Shown here: positions 6,216 to 21,780 of the stretch, in pieces
Numbering within the stretch: the stretch's first letter is position 1
Layout of the letters: each line of letters opens with the position of its first letter
Source of the DNA: a bacterium
GTDB lineage: Bacteria; Vulcanimicrobiota; Vulcanimicrobiia; Vulcanimicrobiales; Vulcanimicrobiaceae
Length of the DNA stretch: 44,637 nt
Assembly: GCA_021778415.1 (NCBI GenBank)
Contig: JAJYCL010000012.1
Span: 1 to 44,637 of the forward strand
Direction of reading: 5' to 3'
The notes under the pieces: generated by a model
Seen by the model: only the letters and a program-made list of their open reading frames with translations
Database searches by the model: none
Told to the model about the DNA's origin: nothing
Translations under genes and position numbers: made by a program

Positions 6216-6557
6216 ATGACCATCAGTCCGCGCGAGCTCATGGTGGTTCTTATTCTCGCCGGCGTCGGGCTCTTCGCGTTCGGATGTGTGGCCGTCCTCA
6301 TCCGTGCCATTCAAGTCTTTCTGCGCGTTCAACGCATCGTGCCGCCCGTTACCGAGGAGCAGCTTCTTGCCGGGCAGCGAGCGTCGGAAAATTTGGCGCG
6401 CTGCGGGCATTTGGCCCAGGCGCACCTCGCGCGCATTACATCGGCCCTGGCGCAGTCGCAAGCGTCCCTAGCCGCTCTGCGCATTCTCCCGGCCCTGCGG
6501 GCGCTATCCGTCGGCGCGAAGGCCGTTCGCGCGCTGTTCGCAGCGGAGATTCGCTAG
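6216..6557 (+). CDS. small membrane protein, unknown
   Basis: A 113-residue protein with one strong membrane segment at about residues 8-31 (VVLILAGVGLFAFGCVAVLI), followed by a predicted helical, Ala/Leu-rich cytoplasmic or periplasmic part (ARITSALAQSQASLAALRIL). No family recognised. The ATG is preceded by GAGG at 6 bases (CGATCGAGGATG context), reasonable for translation. The stop overlaps the stop of the convergent methyltransferase-like gene by 4 bases. Confidence 0.65.
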   Translation: MTISPRELMVVLILAGVGLFAFGCVAVLIRAIQVFLRVQRIVPPVTEEQLLAGQRASENLARCGHLAQAHLARITSALAQSQASLAALRILPALRALSVGAKAVRALFAAEIR

Positions 6558-7720
6558 GGGCGAAAGCCGAAGGGCGGGTTTTCGGGGTCGTCGGGAGGCT
6601 CGGGCGGCCATCCGAACGGCGGATTATTTGTCGGTGGCGGAACGCCGAACGCCTCGGGATTGCCCGTGCTTCCTTGCCCGACTCCGAAGGCCGATGAAAC
6701 CGGCGGAACGACCGGCTGCTCAGGCGTCGGGGCTTTAAACGGCTGCTTGGCGGGTGGCGGTGCCTGAATCTTCGGCGCCGGGGCGGCGGCAGGCTGGCGC
6801 GGAGGCGGCGGCGGCGGTGCCGCATCGAGCGGTGGAAACTCGTATCCCATATCCGCGGAGACTTCGCGCTGAAATTGCTCGCGGAAATTCGATGAGGAAT
6901 CGACGGGCGCACTCGGCGTTTTTTGCGTCGTCGTGAGTGCCTGCGTTTTCGGCGCGGCAACGATGCTCGTCTCTTTGCGCGGTGTGAAATTCGGAATCGG
7001 GAGTTCGCCTGCGGGTGCGCCGACGAGCACAAAGCGCGCCGCGGGAAGCAGCGTTGCGTCGGGGCGTTTTGCCAGCGCGCGTAGTTCGTCGAGATACGTT
7101 TGCGGAGCTTCCTCCACTTGCATCGTAGCGATCAGTAATTCAATGGTATCGGTGACATATTCGCGCGGTGGAACTTTGGCAAACGCGAATACATGTTGAT
7201 CGATTGCGGCTCGCACCCCTTGGAGAAGTTTTTTCCAATAGTCGAGCGGCTGATAGTATTCGAATTGGCCGAGCTCACGTTTTGCTTGGGAATACAGCGA
7301 GGCAATTTTGCGACCCACCGGATCGGCAGGTGGAGCAAGCTCGATAATACCTATGCGCTTTGCAACGCGCCCGAGTTCGGAAAGAATCTGACCGTGAAAA
7401 AATGGATCCGCCTCGTGCAAGTAATGGGCGGCGATTGCCATGTCATAACGATCATTGCGAGCTGGAATGACGGACGTGCTTCCGCGAATGAGTCGCGCAT
7501 TGAGGTGTGCATATTTGCGAATTTCATCATCGCGATGATCGATGACGTGGACTTCCGCGCCGGCATCGATTGCGTTGGAAATCATGGTGCCATCCGGACC
7601 ATAGCCGCAGAAGAGGACGGACATACCCGCTTCAATAGCGAGCGCTTCCCATACTAACGTATCGAGGTATTTGGATTCGCTTTCGAATTCATCGAAAGAA
7701 TAGATCGCTACTTCTCTCAC
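6554..7720 (-). CDS. methyltransferase-like protein with proline-rich tail
   Basis: 388 residues from a GTG at 7720 that overlaps the aroA stop (GTGA), so translation is probably coupled to aroA. The open frame continues upstream inside aroA, but that part is a shadow. Residues about 1-240 resemble a class I SAM-dependent methyltransferase: a glycine-rich loop region (SVLFCGYGPDGTMISNAI), an acidic end of strand 2 (VHVIDHRDDE) and a motif-IV-like strand (DRYDMAIAAHYLHEADPF). The loop is not the usual GxGxG, so activity is uncertain. From about residue 265 the chain becomes Pro/Ala/Thr-rich and disordered, with six consecutive prolines, ending in PPFGWPPEPPDDPENPPFGF. Substrate unknown. It overlaps the convergent gene at 6216-6557 by 4 bases. 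Confidence 0.75.
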   Translation of the reverse strand: MREVAIYSFDEFESESKYLDTLVWEALAIEAGMSVLFCGYGPDGTMISNAIDAGAEVHVIDHRDDEIRKYAHLNARLIRGSTSVIPARNDRYDMAIAAHYLHEADPFFHGQILSELGRVAKRIGIIELAPPADPVGRKIASLYSQAKRELGQFEYYQPLDYWKKLLQGVRAAIDQHVFAFAKVPPREYVTDTIELLIATMQVEEAPQTYLDELRALAKRPDATLLPAARFVLVGAPAGELPIPNFTPRKETSIVAAPKTQALTTTQKTPSAPVDSSSNFREQFQREVSADMGYEFPPLDAAPPPPPPRQPAAAPAPKIQAPPPAKQPFKAPTPEQPVVPPVSSAFGVGQGSTGNPEAFGVPPPTNNPPFGWPPEPPDDPENPPFGFRP

Positions 7721-8955
7721 GTTGTCTGCACGCTCCGCATGGTGGCGATAAACTCGGGAAACGAGACGTCGATGCAGCGTGCGTCGTCGATACTGAGCTC
7801 TCCGGCTGCAGTGGCGAGGACGGCCGTTGCCATCGCCGTTCGATGGTCGCCTTCCGTTGCGATGGTGCCGCCGCCTGCTTTCGGCGTGCCGCCATGGATG
7901 GTGAGGGCATTGGGCTCCGTTTCGCACGCGATGCCAACAGAGGCGCAAAGGCGCTCAATCGCGGCGACACGATCGGATTCCTTGGTTCGCAAGTCGCGTA
8001 TGCCGGTGATGCGGGTGGAGCCGTGCGCGAAGCACGCCGCCACCGCAAGAAGCGGAAGCTCGTCGATGGCCCGTAGCGCGACAAGCGGATCGATGTTTGT
8101 CCCGGTGAGCGTTGCCGAGCGAATCCGAAGAGATCCGAGCGGCTCGCCACAATGCTCGCGCGCATTGATGATCTCGATGTTGGCACCCATGGCGCGCAAT
8201 GCTTCGATAATCCCCGTTCGCGTCGGATTCATGTTCACGCCGGTGATCGTAAGATCGCTATCGCGTGCCAGGGTGGCGGCGGTGATGAAAAATGCCGCGG
8301 CGGAAAGATCGCCCGGTACATCGATATCGTGCGGACGCAATTGTGTGCTGCGCAGTTCGATGCGCTTTCCGTCGCTGATGATATCTGCACCGAGATACCG
8401 CAGCATGCGCTCGGTGTGATCTCGCGAGCCACCATCATTTGTAATCGTCACCGGTGTTTGCGCTGCGACGCCGGCGAGAAGGAGCGCAGATTTAATTTGC
8501 GCTGATTGCGAAAGCAAAATGAAACTGCGTGTCTGCGGTTCGGTTCGGCCATCGATGGTCAGCGGGAGCTTTCCGTCCGTCGTGTGTATGCGCGCGCCAA
8601 ATGCTCGCAATTGCATTGCGACGGGTTCCATCGGACGCTTGCGCAGCGACTCATCGCCATCGAACACGGCGCGGCGATTTGCACCCGCGCAAATGCCGAG
8701 CACCATGCGCGCAGTTGATCCCGAATTCATGCAGTCGATCTGCACCGGCTCGTGTGTGAGTTCGGCCGCTTCAAGGGCGATAAGTGCTTCACGCGTTGCC
8801 TGCACATCGCGACCGGGGTTGAGGCCGCGAATGTTGATCGGATGATCGAGCAGCGATGCCAGCATCAGCGCACGGTGCGAAATCGATTTATCTCCCGGAA
8901 CGGTGATTTCGCCGCGAAGCGGCCCGGCGCCGAAAGTATGCGTGCTTGCCAACAT
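7717..8955 (-). CDS. aroA: 3-phosphoshikimate 1-carboxyvinyltransferase (EPSP synthase)
   Basis: 412 residues, the normal length. The enzyme joins phosphoenolpyruvate to shikimate-3-phosphate in the cytosol, the sixth step of the shikimate pathway. Motifs: PGDKSISHRAL at 20-30 (substrate-binding Lys, Ser, Arg), NSGSTARM near 76-83, GDESLRKRPM near 100-110, QSAQIKSALLLAG in the middle, and TKESDR towards the C-terminus. The NSGST and GDESLRKRPM forms resemble the class II enzymes of Gram-positive bacteria more than the E. coli form. Its stop overlaps the GTG start of the methyltransferase-like gene by 4 bases. The divergent gene begins 107 bases away. Confidence 0.96.
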   Translation of the reverse strand: MLASTHTFGAGPLRGEITVPGDKSISHRALMLASLLDHPINIRGLNPGRDVQATREALIALEAAELTHEPVQIDCMNSGSTARMVLGICAGANRRAVFDGDESLRKRPMEPVAMQLRAFGARIHTTDGKLPLTIDGRTEPQTRSFILLSQSAQIKSALLLAGVAAQTPVTITNDGGSRDHTERMLRYLGADIISDGKRIELRSTQLRPHDIDVPGDLSAAAFFITAATLARDSDLTITGVNMNPTRTGIIEALRAMGANIEIINAREHCGEPLGSLRIRSATLTGTNIDPLVALRAIDELPLLAVAACFAHGSTRITGIRDLRTKESDRVAAIERLCASVGIACETEPNALTIHGGTPKAGGGTIATEGDHRTAMATAVLATAAGELSIDDARCIDVSFPEFIATMRSVQTT

Positions 8956-9585: not shown

Positions 9586-9669
9586 TGGTAGGGAAGGTGG
9601 GATTTGAACCCACACGAGTTGCCCCGGCCGCTTTTGAGGCGGCTGCGTCTGCCGTTCCGCCACTCCCCC
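9586..9669 (-). tRNA. tRNA-Leu (anticodon CAA)
   Basis: Read on the minus strand: acceptor GGGGGAG pairs with CTTCCCT (two G-T pairs), discriminator A, encoded CCA at 9588-9586. The anticodon loop CTCAAAA gives CAA, reading UUG. It has a class II variable arm and a T arm with GGGTTCAAATCCC. It begins 8 bases after the stop of the fusion gene upstream, so it is probably transcribed with it or from a promoter inside it. Confidence 0.94.
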
Positions 9670-9677
9670 GTGGATGG

Positions 9678-12600
9678 TCAGGGGCTTTTCTCCTCAAGAA
9701 GCGTCCGCGCCTGTTCGACCGATGTCGCATCCACGACGTTCAGATTCATGCTGATGTGACGTTTCATGAAGCGAATGGTGGCGATGGAAGCGCCTCGGGT
9801 GTCACGGAGCGTTGCGCTCGTCACGTCCCCTGGATGCCAACAGAGGCGAAGCAACGTGTGTTGCCCGCGATGAAAGACGCCGAGGCAGTGCCCGCCCGGT
9901 TCGATGAGCGACGTGTCGCCGTGATAACGGCGAAATCCTGAAAGTGACACGAGTTGAGCGTTGCTTGCGGGATCGTGCGGCGAAAATGTTTCCGTGATGC
10001 GAATCCCGGGCACTCCATGGGTTACCGTATAGGTCCGTGAGAATCGTGCGCCGCCATTCGGGATATCAGGCGCATCGTAGTGGCACGAAAGTGAAAACTC
10101 TGCTGTCGTACCGGCGTTATCTCGGCAATGATAGCGTCGGTTGAACGTTCCTGCCGGGAGCGGATGCGTATACGCTGCAATATAATCCCGCTTTGAGATG
10201 CTTGGGCTGGGCCAAACTGCATCGCGAAAGAGTCCAATTCCGGTCGCGTAATTATGCGGTACCAATGTTTCGCCTACCATCGACCAATAGGAAAATACTC
10301 TCGATCGAGCCCCCGCTTTGTGAGCGATTCGCAGGGTGAGATTTCCGTCGACGATTCTATAGGATGCGTGGCCCGAAACATCATCTGAAAACGCCGCGGT
10401 TGATGGTACTCCAAATGGTCGAACGGCGGTTACGACGATGCCGCCGCTCTTTTTCGGCCTCGCAGCGACCATTCGCGAAAATAGTTGGCCTTTGCTATCA
10501 ACGACGATTCTGGCGTTGTGTTGGTCGATGTGCATGGCGATCGCTCGACTCGTTGGCGTGTTACGAAAGGTGATGTCGCACGGCAAAGAGGGCAAACGCG
10601 ATTGTCGTCGTGTACTTTGCTGCTGCATGCTCCCGCGCCATGATTCGGCCCAGAGTTCACAGTTCGTGGATTCGATCACGGCCTGGGATGGACGGTGCGG
10701 CGCAATGAGATGAAAGGGAACATCGAAGAGATATACACGCGCGCCGAGCGGCGGAATACGCGCCGCCGCAATCGCGAACGTTCGTCCGCGGTAGGTAAGA
10801 TGCGTGGCGTTGATCTGAACCGAGTGATTCGCTGGGTTAAGGATATCCAACAGGGCGGGCCCGTTGTTGATACCGACGAGCAGACGCGCATTGGAGAGGC
10901 CCCGCAAGATCGGGCGTACGTGTCGCTCGGCTTCGCGCACCGACGGGTAAATTTTCACGCCGAATGCACGGAGCGCACCAAGCCGCGCAACGACGCGAGC
11001 GCGGACTGGGCGCGCGGCGTCGGGAGAAAAAATCACCGCATTTTGTCGGAATAATTCTTGATTCGTAGCATACCGAAGGTCGATGAGTCGGCAAGAGAAG
11101 TGTTCTGCCCGACAGCGTGCGAGTTCATCGATGACGATCTGCATCTGTTTTTCGAAATAGAGAGAAGAGACCGAGGATGAGGGATAGATGCTCGGCGTCC
11201 AAGCGATCGCCATATCGGAGACGGGATGCAACGTGGCAATCGTCGAGCCGAGATCACGTTCAAGTAAGCCAAATGCGCGGACCGACGCATAGCGCTTGGC
11301 AATTTCACCGTCGGCGGTGAACGCCGCGTCCCAGGCATAAGACCAATTTGCCCATGGTGCCTCCCAGCCATCGGGATTGATCGTGTCTTGAAGCGGGAAA
11401 TTGACGATCCCATGCGCACCGAGTTGTAACAGTTCGTTCAGGGCAAGCGTGGTGTTACGCGGGTCGCTTGGGCGCGGCTTGCCTTCATCGGCACCTTGCA
11501 GCCATCCGGCCTGAAACTCGGCGATCATCGTTGGCGCATTGGGTTGCGTCGCCAACAGATCGGTCGCGAAATCGAGTTGCGTGAGATCGTGCAGGCCGAT
11601 TTGATAGGCATCGCTTTGATACCAGTCGCCCCAGGCCCAAACCGGTGATGCCGCGGTCACTTTTTGCTCGTAGGTATTGATCATCAGCGTCACCTCTGTT
11701 CCCACCGATGCCTGGACCGTCGATTTAAGCCAGTCGATGTAGGCACGCCAGTGCGGTCCGGGCCAGGTATCGTTATCGATATACGCGCCCTGATCGTCGT
11801 CAAGCGCAATGGCGATAATATCTCGTCGATACGGCGTTACTTCTTGGAGCACGCGATGCAACCAACGCGCAGCGTAGTGAAGATGCGTCGCATTGGCAAG
11901 CCATTCGGCACCGGCAGCATCTGCATGTGCATTCTGCAACGTCGCGGTCGCCGGATAGCGACCCGTGAGAATATCATGCAGCGGCATCGCGTATTCCGGG
12001 CGTTGTAATAACCACGCCGGATAACCGCCGTTGCGCCATTCATTGCGAATGACCGGCCCTGGGCGCAAGATGATCTTGAATCCCGCGTCATCGATAATTT
12101 TCAGAAGTTGCTGAAGATTTCGACGGTGGTTCGTATGCCCGTCGAAATCGAAGTTGCCGTTACTCAGTTCATGCCAGTTCCACGGAACATACAAATCAAT
12201 GGTATTAATGCCAAGGTTTTTGTAGCGATCGAGATCGTATTGCCATTCCTCCGCTGGAATACGCTCGTAGAAAAATGCCGCGCCCCACACAAAGAACGGC
12301 TTTCCCGCAACAGTAAATACAGGGTGGCCGTTTTCTTGGCGTATCGATGCGCCGGGCCACGATATTGTCGACGCCTGTGCAGGCGCGCTTCCAAGCGTGA
12401 CGAGAACAACAATCGAGGCGGCCAAGGCAAAGGGCCAGAGTCGTCGCATCCGCGCGAAACCGACGAACGTCAGCACACCGATGCACAACCAAGCGGTTCC
12501 GATGATCATGGCAAGACTCCCAGTCGACACGAACGCGAGTAGCCATCCGCCGAGCGCAATCATCGCCGGCAGCGGATAAAACGGCATAGAAAACGGTGCG

Positions 12601-13730
12601 GCATCGCGGGTGCGCCGTAAACGTAGAACGGCGACGATTTGCGCAATAGCCTGGATCAGCACGATGCCCGCCGTGAGGATAGCGATGACAAAATCTAACG
12701 AGAAGAAGCAGAGCGGAATCGTCGCCGCACCGATGGCAACGACGCCAATAAACGGAACCTGGGTCGTGTGCCCGAGGCGCGAAAAGTCGGAAAAAAAGTT
12801 GCCGTCCCGTGCGGCGGCAAACGGAATGCGCGCAAAGCCGAGCAGATTCCCATACAACGATGCAAATGCGGTCAGTACCACCAGTACCACAAACACAGCC
12901 GCAACGGTACCGCCGAACCCGTGCGCAACGGCGGTTGCAGCAAAGAACTGCGGATCACCGGAGATCGGCGTTACGAGAACGCTCACTTGCAAGAGGATAT
13001 ACAGCAGCGCGACAACGGCAATGGCCCAAAAGATCGAACGCGGTGTCGTTCGTGCGGGCTCGCGCAATTCATCACCGAGTAGCGTAGCTTGCGCATAGCC
13101 GACGTAATCGTAGAGTGCGATATACAATCCCGTGCCAAACGCAAGCGCGAGGCTCGGCCAGGAGCCGCGCAGTGCTGGAAACGCGAGCAGATGCTGCCAT
13201 TGCGGATGCAGTAGGCCTGCTGCGATCGCCACCAGTAGCGTCGCAATGGCGATCACGGCAAACGCGCGTGAGAGTTTTTGCACGATGTCCAGACGAGCGA
13301 GTAATCCGACGGTCATCAGGATAGCCAGGAGCGATGCCATCACACCCTTTGCAACCGCATCATGGGCTATTGACGGCATAAGATACGCAGAATATTGCAC
13401 GGCGCCGATCGCGCCGCTGGCCAACAACGCCGGCGCGAAGAGCAACATTTGCCAGGTGAACAAAAATGCGAGGCCGCGACCCCAGCTGTTCGCGCCGAAC
13501 GACTCACGCAAGAAGGTATACGTGCCGCCGGATCCCGGGAATCGCGATCCAAGTTCCGCCCAGACCATGCCGTCGCAGAGCGCAACGAGCGCGCCGGCTA
13601 TCCAAGCGAGCAACGCAGAAGGGCCGACAAGGGCAGACAGAACGAGCGGAACGGTAACGAGCGGGCCGATGCCGATCATCGTAATGATGTTGATGGCCGT
13701 GGCGCCGAGAAGGCCGATCCGTCGTTGCAT
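9678..13730 (-). CDS. amino-acid permease fused to a GH35-like glycoside hydrolase
   Basis: One uninterrupted 1350-residue frame. Residues 1-427 form an APC-superfamily amino acid permease: RRIGLLGATAINIITMIGIG in helix 1, ELGSRFPGSGGTYTFLRE at 59-76, and about 12 membrane segments. Residues 428-453 look like a complete signal peptide (MRRLWPFALAASIVVLVTLG then APAQA). Residues 454-800 match GH35 beta-galactosidases: VWGAAFFYERIPAEEW at 481-496, NTIDLYVPWNWHE, LRPGPVIRNEWRNGGYPAWL at 555-574, and PTMIAEFQAGW around nucleophile-position E738. The acid/base site, normally NE before YG, reads D645-D646-Q-G. Residues 800-1350 are beta-rich, without a domain I can name. A 12-helix permease would leave its C-terminus inside, so the 13th segment could place the hydrolase outside. 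Alternatively two proteins are made, from an internal ATG at 12449, though no ribosome site is visible there. Confidence 0.85.
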   Translation of the reverse strand: MQRRIGLLGATAINIITMIGIGPLVTVPLVLSALVGPSALLAWIAGALVALCDGMVWAELGSRFPGSGGTYTFLRESFGANSWGRGLAFLFTWQMLLFAPALLASGAIGAVQYSAYLMPSIAHDAVAKGVMASLLAILMTVGLLARLDIVQKLSRAFAVIAIATLLVAIAAGLLHPQWQHLLAFPALRGSWPSLALAFGTGLYIALYDYVGYAQATLLGDELREPARTTPRSIFWAIAVVALLYILLQVSVLVTPISGDPQFFAATAVAHGFGGTVAAVFVVLVVLTAFASLYGNLLGFARIPFAAARDGNFFSDFSRLGHTTQVPFIGVVAIGAATIPLCFFSLDFVIAILTAGIVLIQAIAQIVAVLRLRRTRDAAPFSMPFYPLPAMIALGGWLLAFVSTGSLAMIIGTAWLCIGVLTFVGFARMRRLWPFALAASIVVLVTLGSAPAQASTISWPGASIRQENGHPVFTVAGKPFFVWGAAFFYERIPAEEWQYDLDRYKNLGINTIDLYVPWNWHELSNGNFDFDGHTNHRRNLQQLLKIIDDAGFKIILRPGPVIRNEWRNGGYPAWLLQRPEYAMPLHDILTGRYPATATLQNAHADAAGAEWLANATHLHYAARWLHRVLQEVTPYRRDIIAIALDDDQGAYIDNDTWPGPHWRAYIDWLKSTVQASVGTEVTLMINTYEQKVTAASPVWAWGDWYQSDAYQIGLHDLTQLDFATDLLATQPNAPTMIAEFQAGWLQGADEGKPRPSDPRNTTLALNELLQLGAHGIVNFPLQDTINPDGWEAPWANWSYAWDAAFTADGEIAKRYASVRAFGLLERDLGSTIATLHPVSDMAIAWTPSIYPSSSVSSLYFEKQMQIVIDELARCRAEHFSCRLIDLRYATNQELFRQNAVIFSPDAARPVRARVVARLGALRAFGVKIYPSVREAERHVRPILRGLSNARLLVGINNGPALLDILNPANHSVQINATHLTYRGRTFAIAAARIPPLGARVYLFDVPFHLIAPHRPSQAVIESTNCELWAESWRGSMQQQSTRRQSRLPSLPCDITFRNTPTSRAIAMHIDQHNARIVVDSKGQLFSRMVAARPKKSGGIVVTAVRPFGVPSTAAFSDDVSGHASYRIVDGNLTLRIAHKAGARSRVFSYWSMVGETLVPHNYATGIGLFRDAVWPSPSISKRDYIAAYTHPLPAGTFNRRYHCRDNAGTTAEFSLSCHYDAPDIPNGGARFSRTYTVTHGVPGIRITETFSPHDPASNAQLVSLSGFRRYHGDTSLIEPGGHCLGVFHRGQHTLLRLCWHPGDVTSATLRDTRGASIATIRFMKRHISMNLNVVDATSVEQARTLLEEKSP

Positions 13731-13782: not shown

Positions 13783-14823
13783 ATGCACGTACAGCATGAT
13801 TATGCGCGCCTACTTGGGTTAGCCGGCAATCTCGCCTTTGATTTTGTGGAGAGTCCGGCGCTTGTCGGCAACGCATTGGGTGATTCCCCGACGCGACCGG
13901 TTATAACGTATCTTCCACCTGGCTATGATCCAAACGGATCGCGGCAGTATCCTGTCTTGTATTGTTTGCATGGGTACTCCGGAAGTGCAGCCGCTCTCGT
14001 CGGCGCAAGCGCGTGGAATCTCAACGTGATGCAACGCATCGACCGACTGATCACGCGCAAGGCAATGCCGGAGGCTTTGCTTGTCATCGTCGATGGCTGG
14101 ACGCGCTTAGGCGGATCGCAATATGTCGATTCCATTCACAATGGTGCGTATGCAACCTACGTCGTGCGCGACGTTATTGGGCACGTCGATGCGTCATTTC
14201 GCACGATCGCGCACGCCGGTGGCCGCGCCGTGTTCGGAAAATCATCGGGTGGGTTTGGCGCTATGCATCTGGTGATGGAGCATCCCGGCGTGTTCTCGGC
14301 GTTTGCGTCGCATAGCGGGGATAGCTATTTCCGCTATAACCATCCGCCAGCATTCGCCCACCTCCATCGCACGCTCGAACGCTGGCAGTGGGATATGGCG
14401 GCCTTTGTGGATTCGTATACCGGCAAAGCCAAACCAACGGCAGCAGAATTTTCAACCATCGAAATGCTCGGCTATGCATCGGCCTACTCGCCTCTTTCGG
14501 CGAAGCCATTTGATATCGCGCTACCTATCGACCGGGCAACGGGTGAAGTGGATGAGGCAATTTTTGCCCGGTGGGTTGCGTTCGATCCCCTGGAGCGAGT
14601 AGCCGGGAAGGCCAGCGAACTTGCCGCCCTTCGCCTACGTTATCTCGATTGCGGGCGTCGCGATGAGTATGGTCTGGATATCGGGGCTCGAGCGGTGAAG
14701 CGCCGCCTTATTGAACTCGGATGCGAGGTTCAGCATGAAGAATTCGATGATGATCATCGCAACATCGGCTATCGCTACGAAGTTTCTCTCCCACTTCTGA
14801 CGAACGTACTGGATCACACATGA
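13783..14823 (+). CDS. alpha/beta-hydrolase, esterase D / enterochelin esterase-like family
   Basis: 346 residues from ATG 13783; the frame is open much further upstream but that part is antisense to the permease gene. It has the features of the putative-esterase family (PF00756 type): ITYLPPGYDPNG at 41-52, YPVLYCLHGYSGS with the oxyanion region, and a nucleophile elbow GKSSGG with S154. A His in DDDHRNIGYRYE near residue 324 completes the likely triad. Such enzymes cleave acyl esters from sugars, glutathione or siderophores; the substrate here is unknown. No signal peptide, so cytosolic. It is divergent from the permease/GH35 gene with 52 bases between starts, and its stop overlaps the next gene by 4 bases, so those two are one operon. 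Confidence 0.85.
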   Translation: MHVQHDYARLLGLAGNLAFDFVESPALVGNALGDSPTRPVITYLPPGYDPNGSRQYPVLYCLHGYSGSAAALVGASAWNLNVMQRIDRLITRKAMPEALLVIVDGWTRLGGSQYVDSIHNGAYATYVVRDVIGHVDASFRTIAHAGGRAVFGKSSGGFGAMHLVMEHPGVFSAFASHSGDSYFRYNHPPAFAHLHRTLERWQWDMAAFVDSYTGKAKPTAAEFSTIEMLGYASAYSPLSAKPFDIALPIDRATGEVDEAIFARWVAFDPLERVAGKASELAALRLRYLDCGRRDEYGLDIGARAVKRRLIELGCEVQHEEFDDDHRNIGYRYEVSLPLLTNVLDHT

Positions 14824-15386
14824 AAAAACCGTTTTTTGTTCTCTTCGCGTTATTGTTACTCGCCGCCCCGGCGTATGCGCAAGTTACCCCGACTCCGGCA
14901 CCTACCCCAGACCCGCACGTCTACGTTGATCACGCAATGTATCTCGTCGTTCCAAACGATTATTCGTTACTCGGGCGGCGGACGGTACAAGTCGCGCAAC
15001 TTGGCGGAAAACTCGAACCGCTAGCCGTGTGGGCGAAGCACTATCACCGTGATTCAATTTCTCTTACGCTTATGGCCGAGGGCGATAATGAGACGTTAAA
15101 TGCTTGGTTGGTGACGTTCAAAAACGAAATTCGGGAAAAGATCGGTAACGTGTTCATTAAAAAATCGACCCTCGGCACGTTGAAAAATGGTATGCCTGCC
15201 TATTGGGTGACCTTGAGTTATGGGAGCGGCTTCACCTCGCGTAAGCGTGAAGGCTGGGTGTGGTCCGATGGTCAGCGCGGAATCTTTTTGTCCGTGGATT
15301 TTCCGATCGAAGCAATGTCCGAAAAAGAGGCAAAAGCGGCACTCTCCAACGTGCGCGCCACGATGTACCCAAGGATTGACGAGTAG
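14820..15386 (+). CDS. secreted protein of unknown function
   Basis: 188 residues with a textbook signal peptide (MKKPFFVLFALLLLAAPAYA, cleavage before QVTP), followed by a short Pro/Thr linker. The mature part has strands and an amphipathic helix (NAWLVTFKNEIREKIGNVFI), then GMPAYWVTLSYGSGFTSRKR and a final helical segment. The layout resembles small periplasmic domains of PsbP/DUF1795 type, but I cannot assign it. The ATG overlaps the esterase stop (ATGA), so the two are translated together; the esterase itself is cytosolic. The 3' end is 3 bases from the stop of the convergent cystathionine lyase gene. Confidence 0.75.
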   Translation: MKKPFFVLFALLLLAAPAYAQVTPTPAPTPDPHVYVDHAMYLVVPNDYSLLGRRTVQVAQLGGKLEPLAVWAKHYHRDSISLTLMAEGDNETLNAWLVTFKNEIREKIGNVFIKKSTLGTLKNGMPAYWVTLSYGSGFTSRKREGWVWSDGQRGIFLSVDFPIEAMSEKEAKAALSNVRATMYPRIDE

Positions 15387-15389
15387 ACC

Positions 15390-16529
15390 TTAAAGCGATT
15401 CCAAGGCCGATGTGAGATCGGCAATAAGATCGTCGGCATCTTCGATACCCACCGAGAGGCGTAAGAGGCCATCGGTGACACCGCGGCGTTCACGATCTTC
15501 CTTCGGAATGGACCCGTGCGTCATCCGAGCAGGATGGCAGATCAGCGATTCAACGCCGCCGAGCGATTCGGCAAGACTGAAGTACTGGAGTTTCGGCGCA
15601 AACGTCAGCGCCCGCTCCATCGGTCCGCGAAGTGTAAACGAGACCATGCCCGCAAAGCCGCTCATCTGACGTTTTGCCAAGGCATGCTGCGGATGCGATG
15701 GCAGACCCGGGTAGAAAACGCGCTCAACTTCCGCATGGGCTTCGAGAAATTCAGCGATGCGTTGGGCGTTTTCCGCGTGTTGGCGCATCCGAAGTGCAAG
15801 CGTTTTCGCACCGCGCATGGTGAGCCAGGCGTCGTGCGGTGACGGGACGCCGCCAACGGCATTTTGGTGGAATTTTATCGATTCGTGCAGATCATCGTTG
15901 CTGGTGATCGCAACGCCGCCAATAACATCGCTATGGCCGCCGATATATTTCGTCGTCGAATGAACGACAATGTCTGCGCCCAAGGCAAGTGGCGACTGAA
16001 AATACGGCGATGCAAAGGTATTATCGACGACGACAATTTGGCCCGCCGTTCGCAAGGAGCAAATTGCGGCAATATCGATGAGCTTCAGTAACGGATTCGT
16101 CGGTGTCTCGATCCAAAACATTTTGGTGTTCGGCCGAATTGCCGCGCGAACGGCCGCAAGATCGGCCATGTCGACGTAGGTGAACTCCAAACCGTATCGA
16201 GTGAGGACGCGCGAGAAGAGTCGATACGTGCCGCCATAGAGATCATCGGTCACAACGACATGATCACCCATGGCGAGCGTGTTGAGCACAGCAGCCGTTG
16301 CCGCCATGCCGCTGGCGAATGCCGATCCGTGTTGTGCATTTTCGAGCGAGGCGAGTTGCGCTTCAAGCGCAACGCGGGTCGGATTCACCGTTCGGCTATA
16401 ATCAAACCCTTTGTGCGAGCCGACGGCATCCTGGGTGTATGTCGACGTTTGATAGATCGGAACAATCGTTGCTCCGGTTGCCTCGTCGGCTTCTTGACCG
16501 ACGTGAATGGCGCGGGTCGCAAATTTCAT
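15390..16529 (-). CDS. PLP-dependent cystathionine gamma-lyase / gamma-synthase family enzyme
   Basis: 379 residues, full length for the Cys/Met metabolism PLP family. The PLP lysine is K194 in HSTTKYIGGHSDVIGG; PLP-phosphate contacts appear in FASGMAATAA, and YDDLYGGTYRLF-like and TPTNPLL motifs are present. The C-terminal SLGGVESLICHPARMTHGSI motif is typical. The family includes gamma-synthase (MetB), gamma-lyase (MccB/CTH) and beta-lyase (MetC). Position directly after a cystathionine beta-synthase gene, with a 4-base ATGA overlap, favours gamma-lyase: cystathionine to cysteine, 2-oxobutyrate and ammonia. Sequence alone cannot exclude gamma-synthase activity. Confidence 0.9.
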   Translation of the reverse strand: MKFATRAIHVGQEADEATGATIVPIYQTSTYTQDAVGSHKGFDYSRTVNPTRVALEAQLASLENAQHGSAFASGMAATAAVLNTLAMGDHVVVTDDLYGGTYRLFSRVLTRYGLEFTYVDMADLAAVRAAIRPNTKMFWIETPTNPLLKLIDIAAICSLRTAGQIVVVDNTFASPYFQSPLALGADIVVHSTTKYIGGHSDVIGGVAITSNDDLHESIKFHQNAVGGVPSPHDAWLTMRGAKTLALRMRQHAENAQRIAEFLEAHAEVERVFYPGLPSHPQHALAKRQMSGFAGMVSFTLRGPMERALTFAPKLQYFSLAESLGGVESLICHPARMTHGSIPKEDRERRGVTDGLLRLSVGIEDADDLIADLTSALESL

Positions 16530-17920
16530 GCTTGGACCGAACTGGTGGAGAGAAATCCGATGACGTCTTGGCGGGTGACGACGCCAATCGGTTCACCGTC
16601 GTCGGTGACGACGATTGCCGGATTTGCGAGCGTCAGCAATTTATAGGCGCGGTCGATCTCTTCGAATTGCTCGAGCATGGGGAACGGATGGCCCATAACT
16701 TCGCTCACCGGCTTATGAAGTATGTCCGCTTTATCGAAGACGGCTTGCATGACGGCGACATCGTTGACCGAACCGACCTGCTCGCCTCCTCGCATAATCG
16801 GCAATTGCGAAATTTCATATTTGCGGAGAAGATCGAGCGCATCTTTGACAGGCGCCGTATCGAGAAGCGTGATCATCGGTGGCAATGGGGTCTTTGAGCG
16901 CAAAACATCGCCGACAGTGGCGCGGCGCTTGCCCTCGGAGAGAAATCCGTTGGCGATCATCCATTCATCGTTGAAAATTTTCGACATGTAACCACGCCCG
17001 GAATCGGGTAAGATCACAACAACGACGGCATCTTTAGGCAGCTTTTGCGCGAGCCGAACGGCGGCAACGGCGGCGGTACCGGAAGAGCCGCCGACAAGCA
17101 GACCCTCCTCGCGTGCGATGCGTCGAGCCATCAAGAACGAATCGCGGTCCGAAACACGCACCATCTCATCGATCACTTTGAGATCCACGGTTTCGGGAAG
17201 ATAATTCATGCCGATACCTTCGACGGCGTACGACCGCGGCGTATCGCCGGAATAAATGGAGCCTTCGGGGTCCGCTCCGACGACGTGAATCTTCGGATTC
17301 ATCTCTTTGAGATAGCGAGCGGTGCCGGAGATCGTTCCGCCCGTGCCGATACCGGCGACGAGATGGGTGATCGTTCCCCGGGTCTGGGCCCAAATTTCAG
17401 GGCCGGTCGAGGCATAGTGCGCGTCGGGATTATGGTGATTATGAAATTGATTCGGCTGAAACGCTCCGGCGATTTCGGATGCAAGGCGATTGGCAACGCC
17501 GTAATATGATTCCGGTGAATCGGGCGGCACGTTTGTCGGCGTAACGACCACCTCGGCACCATAGGCGCGCAAGAGATCGATTTTTTCCTTCGACATTTTA
17601 TCCGGCATCACGAGAATGCAGCGATAGCCGCGAATGGCCGCGGCCATGGCCAAGCCGCTTCCGGTGTTTCCGCTGGTGGGTTCGACGATCGTTCCGCCCG
17701 GCTTGAGAAGCCCCGCCTTTTCGGCGGCCGCAAGCATCACGATCGATGGGCGGTCTTTGACACTTCCACCCGGATTAACGTATTCGACTTTGGCCAGGAC
17801 CAGACAATTCGCGCCGTCGGTGACTTTGTTGAGTCGCACAAGCGGCGTGTTTCCGACGGCATCGAGTGCCGTCTCGCAGTAGATCGGTCCGGTCTGTTTT
17901 TCGGTGGTTGTCGTTGCCAT
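16526..17920 (-). CDS. cystathionine beta-synthase with C-terminal CBS domain pair
   Basis: 464 residues. The N-terminal part is a fold-type II PLP enzyme: PLP lysine K55 in NPGGSVKDRP, substrate-binding loop TSGNTGSGLA at 82-91, and GIGTGGTISGTARYLKE for the phosphate of PLP. Residues about 335-464 hold two CBS domains (MITLLDTAPVKDALDLLRKY and VVTDDGEPIGVVTRQDVIGF), which in animal enzymes bind SAM. The reaction is serine (or O-acetylserine) plus homocysteine to cystathionine in the cytosol. The FHNHHNPDAHYASTGPEIW segment is typical of true CBS and supports it over plain cysteine synthase. It is the first gene of a two-gene operon with the lyase, giving reverse transsulfuration from methionine sulfur to cysteine. 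Confidence 0.92.
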   Translation of the reverse strand: MATTTTEKQTGPIYCETALDAVGNTPLVRLNKVTDGANCLVLAKVEYVNPGGSVKDRPSIVMLAAAEKAGLLKPGGTIVEPTSGNTGSGLAMAAAIRGYRCILVMPDKMSKEKIDLLRAYGAEVVVTPTNVPPDSPESYYGVANRLASEIAGAFQPNQFHNHHNPDAHYASTGPEIWAQTRGTITHLVAGIGTGGTISGTARYLKEMNPKIHVVGADPEGSIYSGDTPRSYAVEGIGMNYLPETVDLKVIDEMVRVSDRDSFLMARRIAREEGLLVGGSSGTAAVAAVRLAQKLPKDAVVVVILPDSGRGYMSKIFNDEWMIANGFLSEGKRRATVGDVLRSKTPLPPMITLLDTAPVKDALDLLRKYEISQLPIMRGGEQVGSVNDVAVMQAVFDKADILHKPVSEVMGHPFPMLEQFEEIDRAYKLLTLANPAIVVTDDGEPIGVVTRQDVIGFLSTSSVQA

Positions 17921-17996
17921 GGCCGCCGTTTTGGACGAGTCCTTACGGCCCGCCTGCGCGGGGAGTCATCGAGACGATGGCGAAGCGACAAACGTC

Positions 17997-18344
17997 ATGA
18001 TTCGTTCACGTTTTTTGCCGCTCATCGCCGGCCTTGTCATCGTTCTCAGCGGTTGTAATTCCGATGCGTTACCGCCTGCCGGTCAATATGCAACGCTCAG
18101 CGGTGTCGTTACCGATAGCGTGACACATGCGCCCATTTCGGGTGCCACCGTCACCGTGGACGCGGTGCTCACAACGACGACCGATGCAAATGGAGCTTTC
18201 TCGTTTGCGAAGGTTCCGATTGGGGCGCTCGATTTTACGGTTCAGGCCGACGGTCACAAACTCTCGTCGGGCTCGGTGAAAGTCGATGGCGGCAAAGCGT
18301 TCGTCCTCAACGTTGCTCTTGATGCGGCTCAGCCCGGATCGTAA
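17997..18344 (+). CDS. lipoprotein with carboxypeptidase regulatory-like domain
   Basis: 115 residues from ATG 17997; upstream in-frame ATGs exist, but this one opens a clear lipoprotein signal (MIRSRFLPLIAGLVIVLSGC) with lipobox LSGC, Cys about residue 20. The mature part is one Ig-like/prealbumin-like carboxypeptidase regulatory domain, seen in TLSGVVTDSVTHAPISGATV and TTTDANGAFSFAKVPIG. Such domains are small structural or binding modules on the outside of the membrane. The gene is convergent with yvcK, and the two coding ends overlap by 16 bases. Confidence 0.85.
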   Translation: MIRSRFLPLIAGLVIVLSGCNSDALPPAGQYATLSGVVTDSVTHAPISGATVTVDAVLTTTTDANGAFSFAKVPIGALDFTVQADGHKLSSGSVKVDGGKAFVLNVALDAAQPGS

Positions 18345-19633
18345 GCCTCGGCTGGTCGAACCAACGTCGCGCGTGCCGCAATGGCATGATCGATCACATC
18401 GATAACGACGTTCGCTAATTTTTCGCTGTCGTGGCGAACGGTCTGGTTTTCGCTAATGACATCGGCAATAATCGGCGTGAATCCCAGCATGCGAATACGC
18501 TCCACATCCGGTTCCACCGGAATTTGTCCCTCGGCTTCGTATTTTTCACGCAATCGTTCAGGCGCGCGAGCGTTCGTGATGACGTAATCGAAGACACGTT
18601 CGGAAACGTTGGCCGATAACGCTTCGACGTGCTGGGATGCACTCAAGGAGTCCGTTTCGCCCGGCTGCGTCATCACGTTGCAAATATACATTTTTACCGC
18701 GCGAGCGGTAGCAATTTCGCGGGCAACGCGAGCGACGAGCAGATTCGGAATGATCGATGTATACAGGGATCCCGGTCCAAGGACGATAGCATCGGCAGCT
18801 CGGATGGCTGCGATGACTTCTTCGAGCGGTTCGATGACGGCTGGCTCGAAGTAGACACTTTCGATCGGTTTATGCGTTGCTGTAATCGTCGATTCGCCTT
18901 TGACGACGGTTCCGTCTTTGAATCGGGCGCACAGTCGCGCGATGCCCAACGTCGAAGGAAGAACGCGACCAACGATATTTAATACGCGACTCGATTCGCG
19001 AATGGCCACTTCGAAGTTCCCGGTGATACCGGTCATGGCAACGAGAAAAAGATTTCCGAAGGAATGGCCGCTGAGGCCTTCGCCTTCGCTGAATCGATAG
19101 CGAAACAGATCCGTGACCATCGCTTCATCGTCGGCGAGAGCGACTAAGCAGTTCCGAATATCACCGGGAGGTAAAACGCCGAATTCTTTTTGTAGTCGGC
19201 CCGATGAGCCACCGTCATCGCTGACGGTGACGACGGCGGTGAGATTCGTGGTGTGCGATTTGAGGCCACGAAGCAACGTCGATAGCCCCGTGCCTCCGCC
19301 GATGGCCACAATCGTATAGCCGTCGCGCAGGCGCGCGTCATCATGCGGGCTTGTTCGCGCAAACGCCACGAGAGCACGGACGGAGAGAATAACGCCAATA
19401 AGCAACAAGAGGCCGCCAACGGAAAATAAAATCGTGGTGACGAGCGATGGCTTGATGTAATCGACGGCGATATCGTCGATGAGTTCATTGAGATTGAGAT
19501 TCCACCCCTGAGCATTGGCGTATCGCGCGAATGCATCGTAGAGCACGAAGAGCCCGATGAGCGCAATTGTCATCCAGCGTTTAAAGCCCGCCCCCGGTGC
19601 AAGCCAGCGCAGGCGACGAATCATGTACGCCAT
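18329..19633 (-). CDS. yvcK: YvcK/CofD-like protein with N-terminal membrane anchor
   Basis: 434 residues from ATG 19633, whose A is shared with the rapZ stop (TAATG). The catalytic-like part has YTIVAIGGGTGLSTLLRGLK and TVSDDGGSSGRLQKEFG, then PPGDIRNCLVALADDE, the hallmarks of the YvcK/CofD (gluconeogenesis factor) family, which binds UDP-sugars and influences cell-wall synthesis on gluconeogenic carbon sources. Unlike the short B. subtilis protein, about 100 residues precede it with two membrane segments (MTIALIGLFVLYDAF and TTILFSVGGLLLLIGVIL). The usual third partner, whiA, is absent: the next gene is a convergent lipoprotein. Confidence 0.92.
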   Translation of the reverse strand: MAYMIRRLRWLAPGAGFKRWMTIALIGLFVLYDAFARYANAQGWNLNLNELIDDIAVDYIKPSLVTTILFSVGGLLLLIGVILSVRALVAFARTSPHDDARLRDGYTIVAIGGGTGLSTLLRGLKSHTTNLTAVVTVSDDGGSSGRLQKEFGVLPPGDIRNCLVALADDEAMVTDLFRYRFSEGEGLSGHSFGNLFLVAMTGITGNFEVAIRESSRVLNIVGRVLPSTLGIARLCARFKDGTVVKGESTITATHKPIESVYFEPAVIEPLEEVIAAIRAADAIVLGPGSLYTSIIPNLLVARVAREIATARAVKMYICNVMTQPGETDSLSASQHVEALSANVSERVFDYVITNARAPERLREKYEAEGQIPVEPDVERIRMLGFTPIIADVISENQTVRHDSEKLANVVIDVIDHAIAARATLVRPAEAYDPG

Positions 19634-20490
19634 TAGTTGCGCTCCGCGTCGCGCAGTTCGAGACGCGCATCGAGCCCGAAACGTTCGCGAAAATCGTCGG
19701 TCATTCTCTTGGCGATATAGACGGAGCGATGTCGTCCGCCGGTGCAACCAATGGCAATGGTGAGTTGTGATTTTCCTTCGGCAATGAAGCGAGGAACGAG
19801 AAGATCGAACATCGTGCGTAACGCATCAACGAAGGCCTGCGTATCGGGATCATCTTCGATATACGCCGCGACGTCCGGGTGAAGACCCGTTTTTTCACGG
19901 AGGGTATCGACATAGTTGGGATTGCGCAAAAAACGCGCATCGAAAAGCAGATCGATATCCAACGGAATGCCATATTTGAAACCGAAGGCAACGATCGACA
20001 CGCGCATGGAATGGTGGTGGTACGATCCGGTCGTGAGCGAAAGGAGGCGATTCTTGAGTTCGCTATGGGTCAGATCGGTGGTATCGATGATGAACGTCGC
20101 TTCATCGCGCAACGGTGCCAGCGTCGTACGTTCAAGCGCGATCGCCTTGCGCAGCGAACCGCCATCGTCGCTAAACGGGTGGCGACGTCGCGTTTCACTA
20201 TATCGGCGGATGAGGACGTCATCGCGTGCGTCGACAAAAAGAACGATATGCTCGACCGTTGTGGCGCGAATGCTGGTGAGTGCGTCGCCAAGCTCCCCAT
20301 GGGCTCGGAGGTCGAGGGAAATAGCTAATTGGCCGATCCCGCCGCGGTCGATCAGCGCGACCGTTTCGTCCAAAAGTGCGGGAGGAAGGTGATCGATGCA
20401 ATAATAGCCGAGATCCTCAAGGGTTTTCATTGTCTGACTCTTTCCCGCACCGGAAAGCCCGACAACAAAGATAATTCGCTCGACGCTCAC
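19633..20490 (-). CDS. rapZ: RapZ / YvcJ nucleotide-binding protein
   Basis: 285 residues, normal length. The Walker A motif is GLSGAGKSQTMKTLEDLGYYCIDHLPPALL in two overlapping segments at about 12-38; the Walker B region and the C-terminal IAIGCTGGRHRSVYIAKRM motif are typical of the family. RapZ in E. coli is an RNA-binding adaptor that controls GlmS (glucosamine-6-phosphate) through small RNAs; YvcJ in B. subtilis binds GTP and affects competence. Which role applies here is unknown. It is the first gene of the rapZ-yvcK operon and is divergent from the DUF2203 gene by 21 bases. Confidence 0.95.
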   Translation of the reverse strand: MSVERIIFVVGLSGAGKSQTMKTLEDLGYYCIDHLPPALLDETVALIDRGGIGQLAISLDLRAHGELGDALTSIRATTVEHIVLFVDARDDVLIRRYSETRRRHPFSDDGGSLRKAIALERTTLAPLRDEATFIIDTTDLTHSELKNRLLSLTTGSYHHHSMRVSIVAFGFKYGIPLDIDLLFDARFLRNPNYVDTLREKTGLHPDVAAYIEDDPDTQAFVDALRTMFDLLVPRFIAEGKSQLTIAIGCTGGRHRSVYIAKRMTDDFRERFGLDARLELRDAERN

Positions 20491-21333: not shown

Positions 21334-21416
21334 GGGGACTCCTTGTAACCTGGTGTGATTGCGTGACGTTCGATGAGACCTCAATGCCGCCTTCATCGGT
21401 TGCGTTTGAGGACGTT

Positions 21417-21780
21417 TGCGAAGTGCGCCGATAAGCCGGATTCTGTACCATCGCAAGCGATGGCGACGACCATCTCTCTGGGGCGACCGTTACCGTTCGC
21501 CTCATTGCACTCTCCCGTTCGAGTGGGCCACCCGGCCGCACGAATGCGGCAGATCAGGAGAGCTTGCTTCCAGGTGGGGTTTACCCGCGCGCATGTCTCC
21601 ATGCAACGCCGTGAGCTCTTACCTCACGATTTCACCCTTACCGCGCAAGCGCGGCGGTTTGTTTCTGTGGCACTTTCCTTCGAGTTGCCCCGACAGGCCG
21701 TTAGCCTGCACCCTGCCCGTTAAAGCCCGGACTTTCCTCGACTCCACGCGGGGAGCCGCGGTCATCTAGCGCACTTCGCG
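21417..21780 (-). ncRNA. rnpB: RNase P RNA
   Basis: The minus strand carries the universal rnpB signatures: near the 5' end, GAGGAAAGTCCGGGC; AACGGGCAGGGTGCAGGCTA; then GAAAGTGCCACAGAAAC; and near the 3' end CAGAATCCGGCTTATCGG. The P1 stem is formed by GCGAAGTGCGC at the 5' end and GCGCACTTCGC at the 3' end. About 364 nt, the normal size for a bacterial type A RNA. It processes tRNA 5' ends. Confidence 0.97.

What the first reader, a model, noticed from the sequence alone, without database searches (positions are those of the whole stretch)
9678..13730. Amino-acid permease fused to a GH35-type glycoside hydrolase
One unbroken 1350-residue frame joins an APC-type permease (1-427) to a GH35-like hydrolase (454-800) plus a long beta-rich tail. 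I know of no described fusion of this kind. It could couple breakdown of a glycan or glycopeptide to uptake of a released amino acid or amino sugar, or be a surface-anchored enzyme that borrowed a membrane anchor.
Basis: partly seen in the sequence, partly recalled or inferred. Interest (0 to 1): 0.8.

Follow-up and report, generated by a model that had tools for sequence, protein, structure and literature searches.

The report
Transporter fused to a sugar-cleaving enzyme
A family of soil bacteria carries a real, conserved gene that joins a membrane importer to a sugar-cleaving enzyme through one extra membrane helix, which suggests (untested) that one protein cuts a sugar compound outside the inner membrane and pulls the piece in.

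Summary
Window 9678-13730 (minus strand) is one open frame of 1350 aa. It joins a 12-helix APC-fold permease (1-427), a 13th hydrophobic helix (432-446), a GH35-related three-domain glycosidase (about 455-1020), a disordered linker and a C-terminal beta domain. It is not a sequencing error: 50 of 99 held genomes of the same Eremiobacterota family, in about 21 genera, carry the same fusion, 49 of them in one frame. Both halves are under purifying selection, and an internal start at the join is not conserved. Other family members have the two genes apart, with the GH35 gene at the same locus. The stand-alone permease occurs only in genomes without the fusion (0 of 50 against 18 of 28).

[quoted passage not shown] It keeps the nucleophile Glu and GlmA's amine-recognising Asp, but the acid/base Glu is an invariant Asp. 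The permease lacks the usual amino-acid-binding motif; its stand-alone relatives sit in sugar operons.

Best reading: a one-chain enzyme-importer whose periplasmic glycosidase feeds an amine-bearing sugar to the permease. Fusion and topology are well supported; substrate, catalysis and coupling are inferred. I found no published description.

The parts
9678..13730 (-). Whole fused gene, 1350 aa, ATG at 13730
   Evidence: Open frame; same architecture in 50 related genomes
12450..13730 (-). Permease half, residues 1-427, 12-TM APC (LeuT-type) fold
   Evidence: Pfam AA_permease_2; model residues 4-429 align with BasC 9h76 at Z 42.3, 412 residues, rmsd 2.4
13647..13673 (-). TM1 signature G-x-G-P-x-x-T-x-P (residues 20-28), in place of the canonical G[STA]GIF
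   Evidence: Near-invariant in fused, family-separate and outside stand-alone permeases; compared with own-genome paralogues
13095..13112 (-). TM6 signature Y-D-Y-x-G-Y (residues 207-212) with an acidic residue D208
   Evidence: D208 in 47/47 fused, 24/24 separate, 46/53 outside permeases
12393..12443 (-). Join: R-x-W-P-F motif and 13th hydrophobic helix (residues 430-446); resembles a signal peptide
   Evidence: W432-P433 invariant in 41 fused proteins; helix 432-446 in the model; hydropathy and positive loop before it
12447..12449 (-). ATG codon of M428, the only candidate internal start at the join; not conserved
   Evidence: ATG near the join in 3 of 41, no start codon at all in 13 of 41, SD-like sequence in 1 of 41
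11295..12368 (-). TIM barrel of the GH35-related half (about residues 455-812)
   Evidence: Pfam GH35; fold match to GlmA and GH35 enzymes
11793..11801 (-). D644-D645-D646 after beta-4: D645 = amine-recognising Asp178 of GlmA, D646 = acid/base position (Glu179) changed to Asp
   Evidence: Alignment with P. horikoshii GlmA 'TIDDEP'; DDD in 64 of 64 sequences; PMC6566704
11517..11519 (-). E738 at the end of beta-7, catalytic nucleophile position
   Evidence: Aligns with SEFWSGW of GH35 3d3a; invariant 64/64; strand 734-739 in the model
10671..11294 (-). Second and third domains of the GlmA-like enzyme (about residues 813-1020)
   Evidence: Fold alignment to 5gsl reaches model residue 567 = residue 1020, Z 37.4, 504 residues
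10383..10661 (-). Low-confidence, variable linker (about residues 1024-1116)
   Evidence: pLDDT under 50; variable between relatives
9729..10364 (-). C-terminal beta domain (about residues 1123-1334), conserved in the family
   Evidence: All-beta with high pLDDT; invariant residues such as G1140, R1142, R1169, D1170 (numbers plus 453)
13783..14823 (+). Divergent esterase gene, conserved neighbour of the GH35 gene whether fused or separate
   Evidence: Pfam PF00756; opposite strand beside GH35 in 25/30 fused and 25/27 separate loci

Best explanation
This is a single-chain enzyme-importer of the inner membrane. Shown by sequence and comparison: one polypeptide frame carries a 12-TM APC-fold permease, then a conserved R-x-W-P-F turn and a 13th hydrophobic helix, then a GlmA-like GH35-related glycosidase. 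Inferred from established topology rules: the permease has both ends in the cytoplasm, so the 13th helix carries the enzyme to the periplasmic side of these two-membrane cells. Inferred, moderate: the enzyme cleaves a beta-linked, probably amine-bearing sugar from a periplasmic glycoside, by a retaining mechanism with E738 as nucleophile and an unusual Asp at the acid/base place. Inferred, weaker: the permease beside it imports the released unit, so that cleavage and uptake happen at one spot.
For: Fusion recurs in 50 of 99 held family genomes in about 21 genera, 49 of them in one frame. In close pairs dN/dS is 0.04-0.19 for the permease and 0.03-0.11 for the GH part. Internal start not conserved. 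GH active site invariant in 64 of 64. Closest folds of the enzyme half are the exo-beta-D-glucosaminidases 5gsl/5gsm/8oug and a beta-1,2-glucosyltransferase. GlmA's Asp178, which recognises the C2 amine, is kept as D645. Permease lacks the canonical TM1 motif. Its stand-alone relatives lie in operons with PfkB kinase and GH4, many with a PIG-L deacetylase and six with a GH35 gene directly upstream; archaeal chitin breakdown pairs GlmA with a diacetylchitobiose deacetylase (reference list seen; its PIG-L/CE14 membership is my own knowledge). Stand-alone permease present only where the fusion is absent: 0 of 50 against 18 of 28 genomes, as if both activities are needed but may be joined or apart. 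Cultured relative V. alpinus is Gram-negative with an outer membrane (PMC9758169).
Against: No activity or transport data exist. The acid/base Glu is Asp, which often cripples a glycosidase, and R-N replaces the C-G/A pair next to the active-site E564. About a third of genomes with a separate GH35 gene (10 of 28) have no close permease, so the enzyme can work without it. In this species the permease half evolves fast, with 13 departures at near-invariant sites against 0-10 in relatives. The family's own permease loci lack the PfkB-GH4-PIG-L operon. The exclusivity test is only borderline after correcting for shared ancestry (median p 0.06).
Confidence: 0.45

Rival explanations
1. Transporter with a glycosidase-like ancillary ectodomain. 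The GH35-related half has lost or changed catalysis and serves to stabilise, localise or tune the permease, as the GH13-like ectodomains of rBAT and 4F2hc do for SLC7 light chains.
For: The permease's fold neighbours include the SLC7 light chains of heteromeric transporters, which work with a one-TM, glycosidase-fold ectodomain (PMC8537225). The acid/base Glu is replaced by Asp.
Against: The active-site residues are strictly invariant in 64 sequences, whereas 4F2hc lost its catalytic residues. The GH35 gene occurs alone with its own signal peptide at the same locus, sometimes with no permease in the genome, so it is not only a permease subunit.
Confidence: 0.2
2. One frame, two products. The 13th helix acts as an internal signal peptide and signal peptidase cuts after it, releasing a free periplasmic glycosidase and leaving a separate permease, like the cytochrome b/c1 precursor FbcH of Bradyrhizobium (precedent from my own knowledge).
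For: The join looks like a signal peptide (MRRLWPFALAASIVVLVTLGSAPAQA in the window), and stand-alone GH35 copies at the same locus carry true signal peptides. A-x-A sites follow the helix in 34 of 41 fused proteins.
Against: A-x-A is expected by composition alone in 28 of 41, so the sites are not informative. The model predicts a 15-residue helix that fits either a TM or a signal peptide.
Confidence: 0.2
3. The permease is only a membrane anchor: its transport function is irrelevant and it holds the enzyme at the inner membrane.
For: In this species the permease half is accelerated. A separate GH35 enzyme survives without any permease in some genomes.
Against: Low dN/dS and a conserved substrate-site signature in the permease across the family, including in the window protein itself. 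A 12-TM permease is an expensive anchor when one helix suffices.
Confidence: 0.1
4. Assembly or sequencing artefact joining two genes.
For: The genome is a draft of 61 contigs.
Against: Same fusion in tens of independently assembled genomes at 44-57% identity, with a conserved join.
Confidence: 0.01

Closest known systems
GlmA, archaeal exo-beta-D-glucosaminidase (GH35; 5gsm, 5gsl, 8oug)
   Same: Same three-domain fold order over 504 residues (Z 37.4); Asp before the acid/base position; nucleophile Glu at beta-7
   Different: Acid/base Glu is Asp; R-N replaces C-G beside the conserved Glu; an extra C-terminal beta domain; exported and joined to a permease; score 106 bits against the 1500-bit equivalog cut-off
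BasC / LAT-type APC permeases (9h76, SLC7 light chains)
   Same: 12-TM LeuT-type fold, Z 42.3, 412 residues
   Different: 23% identity; TM1 motif G-x-G-P and TM6 Y-D-Y-x-G-Y in place of the amino-acid motif; 13th helix and fused enzyme
Heteromeric amino acid transporters (SLC7 plus rBAT/4F2hc)
   Same: An APC-fold transporter held next to a one-TM, glycosidase-fold ectodomain
   Different: Two chains joined by a disulphide, GH13 not GH35, eukaryotic, ectodomain without shown activity (PMC8537225)
Stand-alone permease operons of Acidobacteria, Rhodanobacteraceae and Sphingomonas (permease-PfkB-GH4, with PIG-L or GH35)
   Same: Same permease subfamily (36-42% identity, same TM1/TM6 signature); six loci have a GH35 gene directly upstream
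   Different: Separate genes; the GH35 there is the canonical ENEY type
beta-1,2-glucosyltransferase of Ignavibacterium album (GH35; 7vkw-7vl3)
   Same: Same fold, Z 36.8 over 488 residues
   Different: A transglycosylase; not fused to a transporter

Membership tests
APC superfamily permease | AA_permease_2 profile match and 12-TM LeuT-type fold | tested here: met
   95.5 bits against a 27-bit cut-off; BasC Z 42.3, 412 residues, rmsd 2.4
Amino-acid transporter of the APC superfamily | TM1 substrate motif G[STA]GIF | tested here: not met
   Reads G-I-G-P in the window and G-x-G-P across the subfamily, unlike most of the five own-genome paralogues
Amino-acid transporter of the APC superfamily | Transports amino acids | not testable with these tools
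   No assay
GH35 | Glyco_hydro_35 profile match and TIM barrel | tested here: met
   119.7 bits against 27; fold matches to GH35 enzymes
GH35 | Nucleophile Glu at the end of beta-7 | tested here: met
   E738 aligned with 3d3a SEFWSGW, invariant 64/64
GH35 | Acid/base Glu after beta-4 | tested here: not met
   Asp646 in all 64 sequences; alignment to GlmA Glu179
GlmA-type exo-beta-D-glucosaminidase | Asp preceding the acid/base residue (amine recognition) | tested here: met
   D645 aligns with Asp178
GlmA-type exo-beta-D-glucosaminidase | NCBIfam NF041127 equivalog score of 1500 bits | tested here: not met
   106.2 bits
GlmA-type exo-beta-D-glucosaminidase | Releases glucosamine | not testable with these tools
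   No assay
Heteromeric amino acid transporter (SLC7/SLC3) | Separate heavy chain of the GH13 family | tested here: not met
   One chain, GH35-related domain
Cleaved fusion precursor (FbcH-like) | Signal peptidase cut between the halves in vivo | not testable with these tools
   A-x-A frequency is not above composition; needs proteomics

The most novel reading that the evidence does not exclude
A new class of one-chain enzyme-transporters: a periplasmic GH35-related glycosidase with an Asp acid/base, joined by a 13th helix to an APC permease of a sugar-operon subfamily, cuts an amine-bearing glycoside and imports the released unit, and the two activities have been fused and separated repeatedly at one locus in one bacterial family.
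Probability: 0.4. Interest if true: 0.75.

Novelty: new variant of a known kind. Interest (0 to 1): 0.6.

Why it matters
If true, it is a bacterial case of a transporter physically joined to a catalytic glycosidase on its outer face, a parallel to the puzzling glycosidase-fold ectodomains of human rBAT and 4F2hc, whose own enzymatic role is unresolved. It also suggests that a widespread branch of 'amino acid permeases' carries amine-bearing sugars instead, and it offers a directly testable function for a core gene of a little-studied phylum that has one cultured member.

Tried and rejected
Internal start at M428: rejected as the family rule. Signal-peptidase sites by A-x-A count: uninformative. 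Search for PIG-L, PfkB, GH4 and TonB genes beside the family's own permeases: none. PIG-L hits of opposite strand at offset near 0 are antisense shadows of the permease caused by an over-long query frame and were ignored. Joint AlphaFold model of both halves: relative placement not reliable (pTM 0.54), so no channelling geometry was read from it. The C-terminal beta domain (1123-1334) has no clear separate fold match in the lists, but it was not searched alone. Plasmid records: only separate permeases or GH35 pieces, none covering 80% of the query. Paper searches for transporter-glycosidase fusions, for glucosamine transport by APC permeases, and for these operons gave nothing relevant. The fbcH precedent could not be confirmed in the paper library and rests on my own knowledge.
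Full report
The observation. Window 9678-13730 on the minus strand is one open frame of 1350 codons, starting at ATG 13730. Pfam gives AA_permease_2 at residues 5-443 (E 4.5e-27) and Glyco_hydro_35 from residue 472 (E 2.7e-34). Both scores lie far above the curated cut-offs, so the domain calls are not chance.

It is not an artefact. The window lies in a 2.59 Mb draft genome whose relatives are Candidatus Eremiobacterota. In 99 held genomes of its family, 50, in about 21 genera, have both domains adjacent in the same orientation; all but G015 keep them in one open frame. Fused relatives are 44-57% identical over most of the protein. Within the 149 held genomes of the phylum the GH35-related gene was found only in this family, in 85 genomes, nearly always one copy. 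A scan of 84,980 species found the fused form only in this group; two hits titled Rhodospirillales are the same genomes that the genome search places in the family. That scan reaches close relatives only, so fusions elsewhere are not excluded.

The join is conserved. In 41 aligned fused proteins W432-P433 is invariant, nearly always in an R-x-W-P-F setting, and is followed by a hydrophobic stretch of about 15 residues. AlphaFold places 12 helices in a permease fold (residues 4-429 align with BasC, Z 42.3, 412 residues, rmsd 2.4) and a further helix at 432-446. Since the APC fold ends in the cytoplasm (established knowledge), the 13th helix would put the enzyme in the periplasm. The cultured relative Vulcanimicrobium alpinus has an outer membrane (PMC9758169). 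M428, at window 12449, is the obvious candidate internal start, but an ATG near the join occurs in 3 of 41, no start codon at all within 17 codons in 13 of 41, and a Shine-Dalgarno-like sequence in 1 of 41. So separate initiation is not the family rule. Cleavage after translation stays open; A-x-A sites are no more frequent than composition explains beyond 34 against 28 of 41.

Both halves are maintained. In close pairs of fused genes dN/dS is 0.04-0.19 for the permease, 0.03-0.11 for the GH part, and mostly 0.07-0.4 at the join, which is short and noisy. In the window's own species the permease is fast-evolving: 13 departures at near-invariant positions, against 0-10 elsewhere, while the GH part is normal. 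All signature residues named below are nevertheless intact.

Fused and separate forms. At least 28 family genomes have a GH35 gene that is not fused and not at a contig edge. It sits at the same locus, beside a divergent esterase (25 of 27 separate and 25 of 30 fused loci) and the cystathionine lyase and synthase genes, and carries its own signal peptide. On the GH35 tree the state changes at least 10 times (7-8 forced by well supported branches). Stand-alone family permeases mostly form one clade. They occur in 18 of 28 genomes with a separate GH35 gene and in 0 of 50 with the fusion (Fisher p 6e-11 without regard to ancestry; with independent pairs the direction is always the same, but median p is 0.06). 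The simplest reading is that the permease function is kept, joined or apart, in most members, while 10 genomes lack a close permease.

The enzyme half. Its closest folds are the archaeal exo-beta-D-glucosaminidases (5gsl Z 37.4, 504 residues, rmsd 3.3) and a beta-1,2-glucosyltransferase of GH35 (Z 36.8, 488 residues). In GlmA, Asp178 before the acid/base Glu179 binds the C2 amine of glucosamine and D178N is dead (PMC6566704). The window aligns D645-D646 to Asp178-Glu179, so the amine-reading Asp is kept and the acid/base is Asp. The nucleophile position E738 aligns with the canonical GH35 Glu. D644-D645-D646, E738, E564, R562 and N563 are invariant in 64 sequences, fused and separate. Strict invariance argues for a working site; the Glu to Asp change argues for an altered mechanism or substrate. 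The GlmA paper itself warns that its nucleophile cannot be inferred from sequence, so my assignment rests on alignment with ordinary GH35 enzymes and on the beta-7 place in the model.

The permease half. The usual amino-acid motif G[STA]GIF of TM1 reads G-x-G-P, and TM6 reads Y-D-Y-x-G-Y with an acidic residue, in fused, separate and outside relatives alike. The outside relatives (36-42% identical) lie in operons with a PfkB kinase and GH4, often a PIG-L deacetylase and a TonB receptor, and in six Luteibacter/Dyella loci with a canonical GH35 gene immediately upstream. This links the permease branch to sugar metabolism, twice independently to GH35. It does not prove the substrate, and the family's own loci lack these operons.

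Mechanism and its status. Shown: one frame, conserved fusion, both halves constrained, GlmA-like fold, invariant active site. Inferred with good support: periplasmic enzyme and inner-membrane permease. Inferred with moderate support: the enzyme frees, and the permease imports, an amine-bearing sugar. The strongest rivals are a non-catalytic ectodomain like those of human rBAT and 4F2hc (PMC8537225) and a precursor cut into two proteins.

Novelty. Both parts belong to known folds; the combination, the 13th-helix connection and the Asp acid/base variant are not described in the papers I could search. I rate it a new variant of a known kind. It fails two tests for plain family membership (acid/base Glu of GH35; TM1 motif of amino-acid transporters), so I call it GH35-related and APC-fold, not a GH35 beta-galactosidase or an amino-acid permease.

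Noticed in passing
L050-L101 (Acidobacteria, Luteibacter, Dyella, Sphingomonas), around the permease match: Conserved operon of an APC permease with G-x-G-P motif, a PfkB kinase and GH4, often with a PIG-L deacetylase, a TonB receptor or GH35: a probable undescribed sugar-uptake pathway.
   Followed up: partly
window 12450-13730: The permease half of this species is unusually divergent (branch 1.3 against a median of 0.17; 13 departures at near-invariant sites) while the GH half is normal.
   Followed up: partly
window 14820-15386 (+): 188-aa protein with no Pfam or NCBIfam match, conserved beside the esterase in 38 of 57 loci.
   Followed up: no
window 6554-7948 (-): Frame of up to 464 aa without family match, overlapping aroA's frame, with relatives in 22 loci.
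   Followed up: no
window 22487-24028 (-): 513-aa frame with no NCBIfam match and a match in only one of the compared loci; most loci do not reach this far.
   Followed up: no
window 15390-20490 (-): Conserved run of cystathionine lyase/synthase-type genes, YvcK and RapZ next to this locus across the family.
   Followed up: partly
L029 and L031: Records titled Rhodospirillales carry the same gene as genomes G014 and G007, which genome search places in this family: probably mislabelled MAGs.
   Followed up: partly
genome G015, contig C49, 20492-23256: The fused gene is broken into three frames (663, 420, 698 aa): pseudogene or assembly errors.
   Followed up: no
window 9589-9669 (-): A tRNA gene lies 9 bases after the stop of the fused gene; further tRNA genes and a class A RNase P RNA (21416-21777 -) are in the window.
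   Followed up: no
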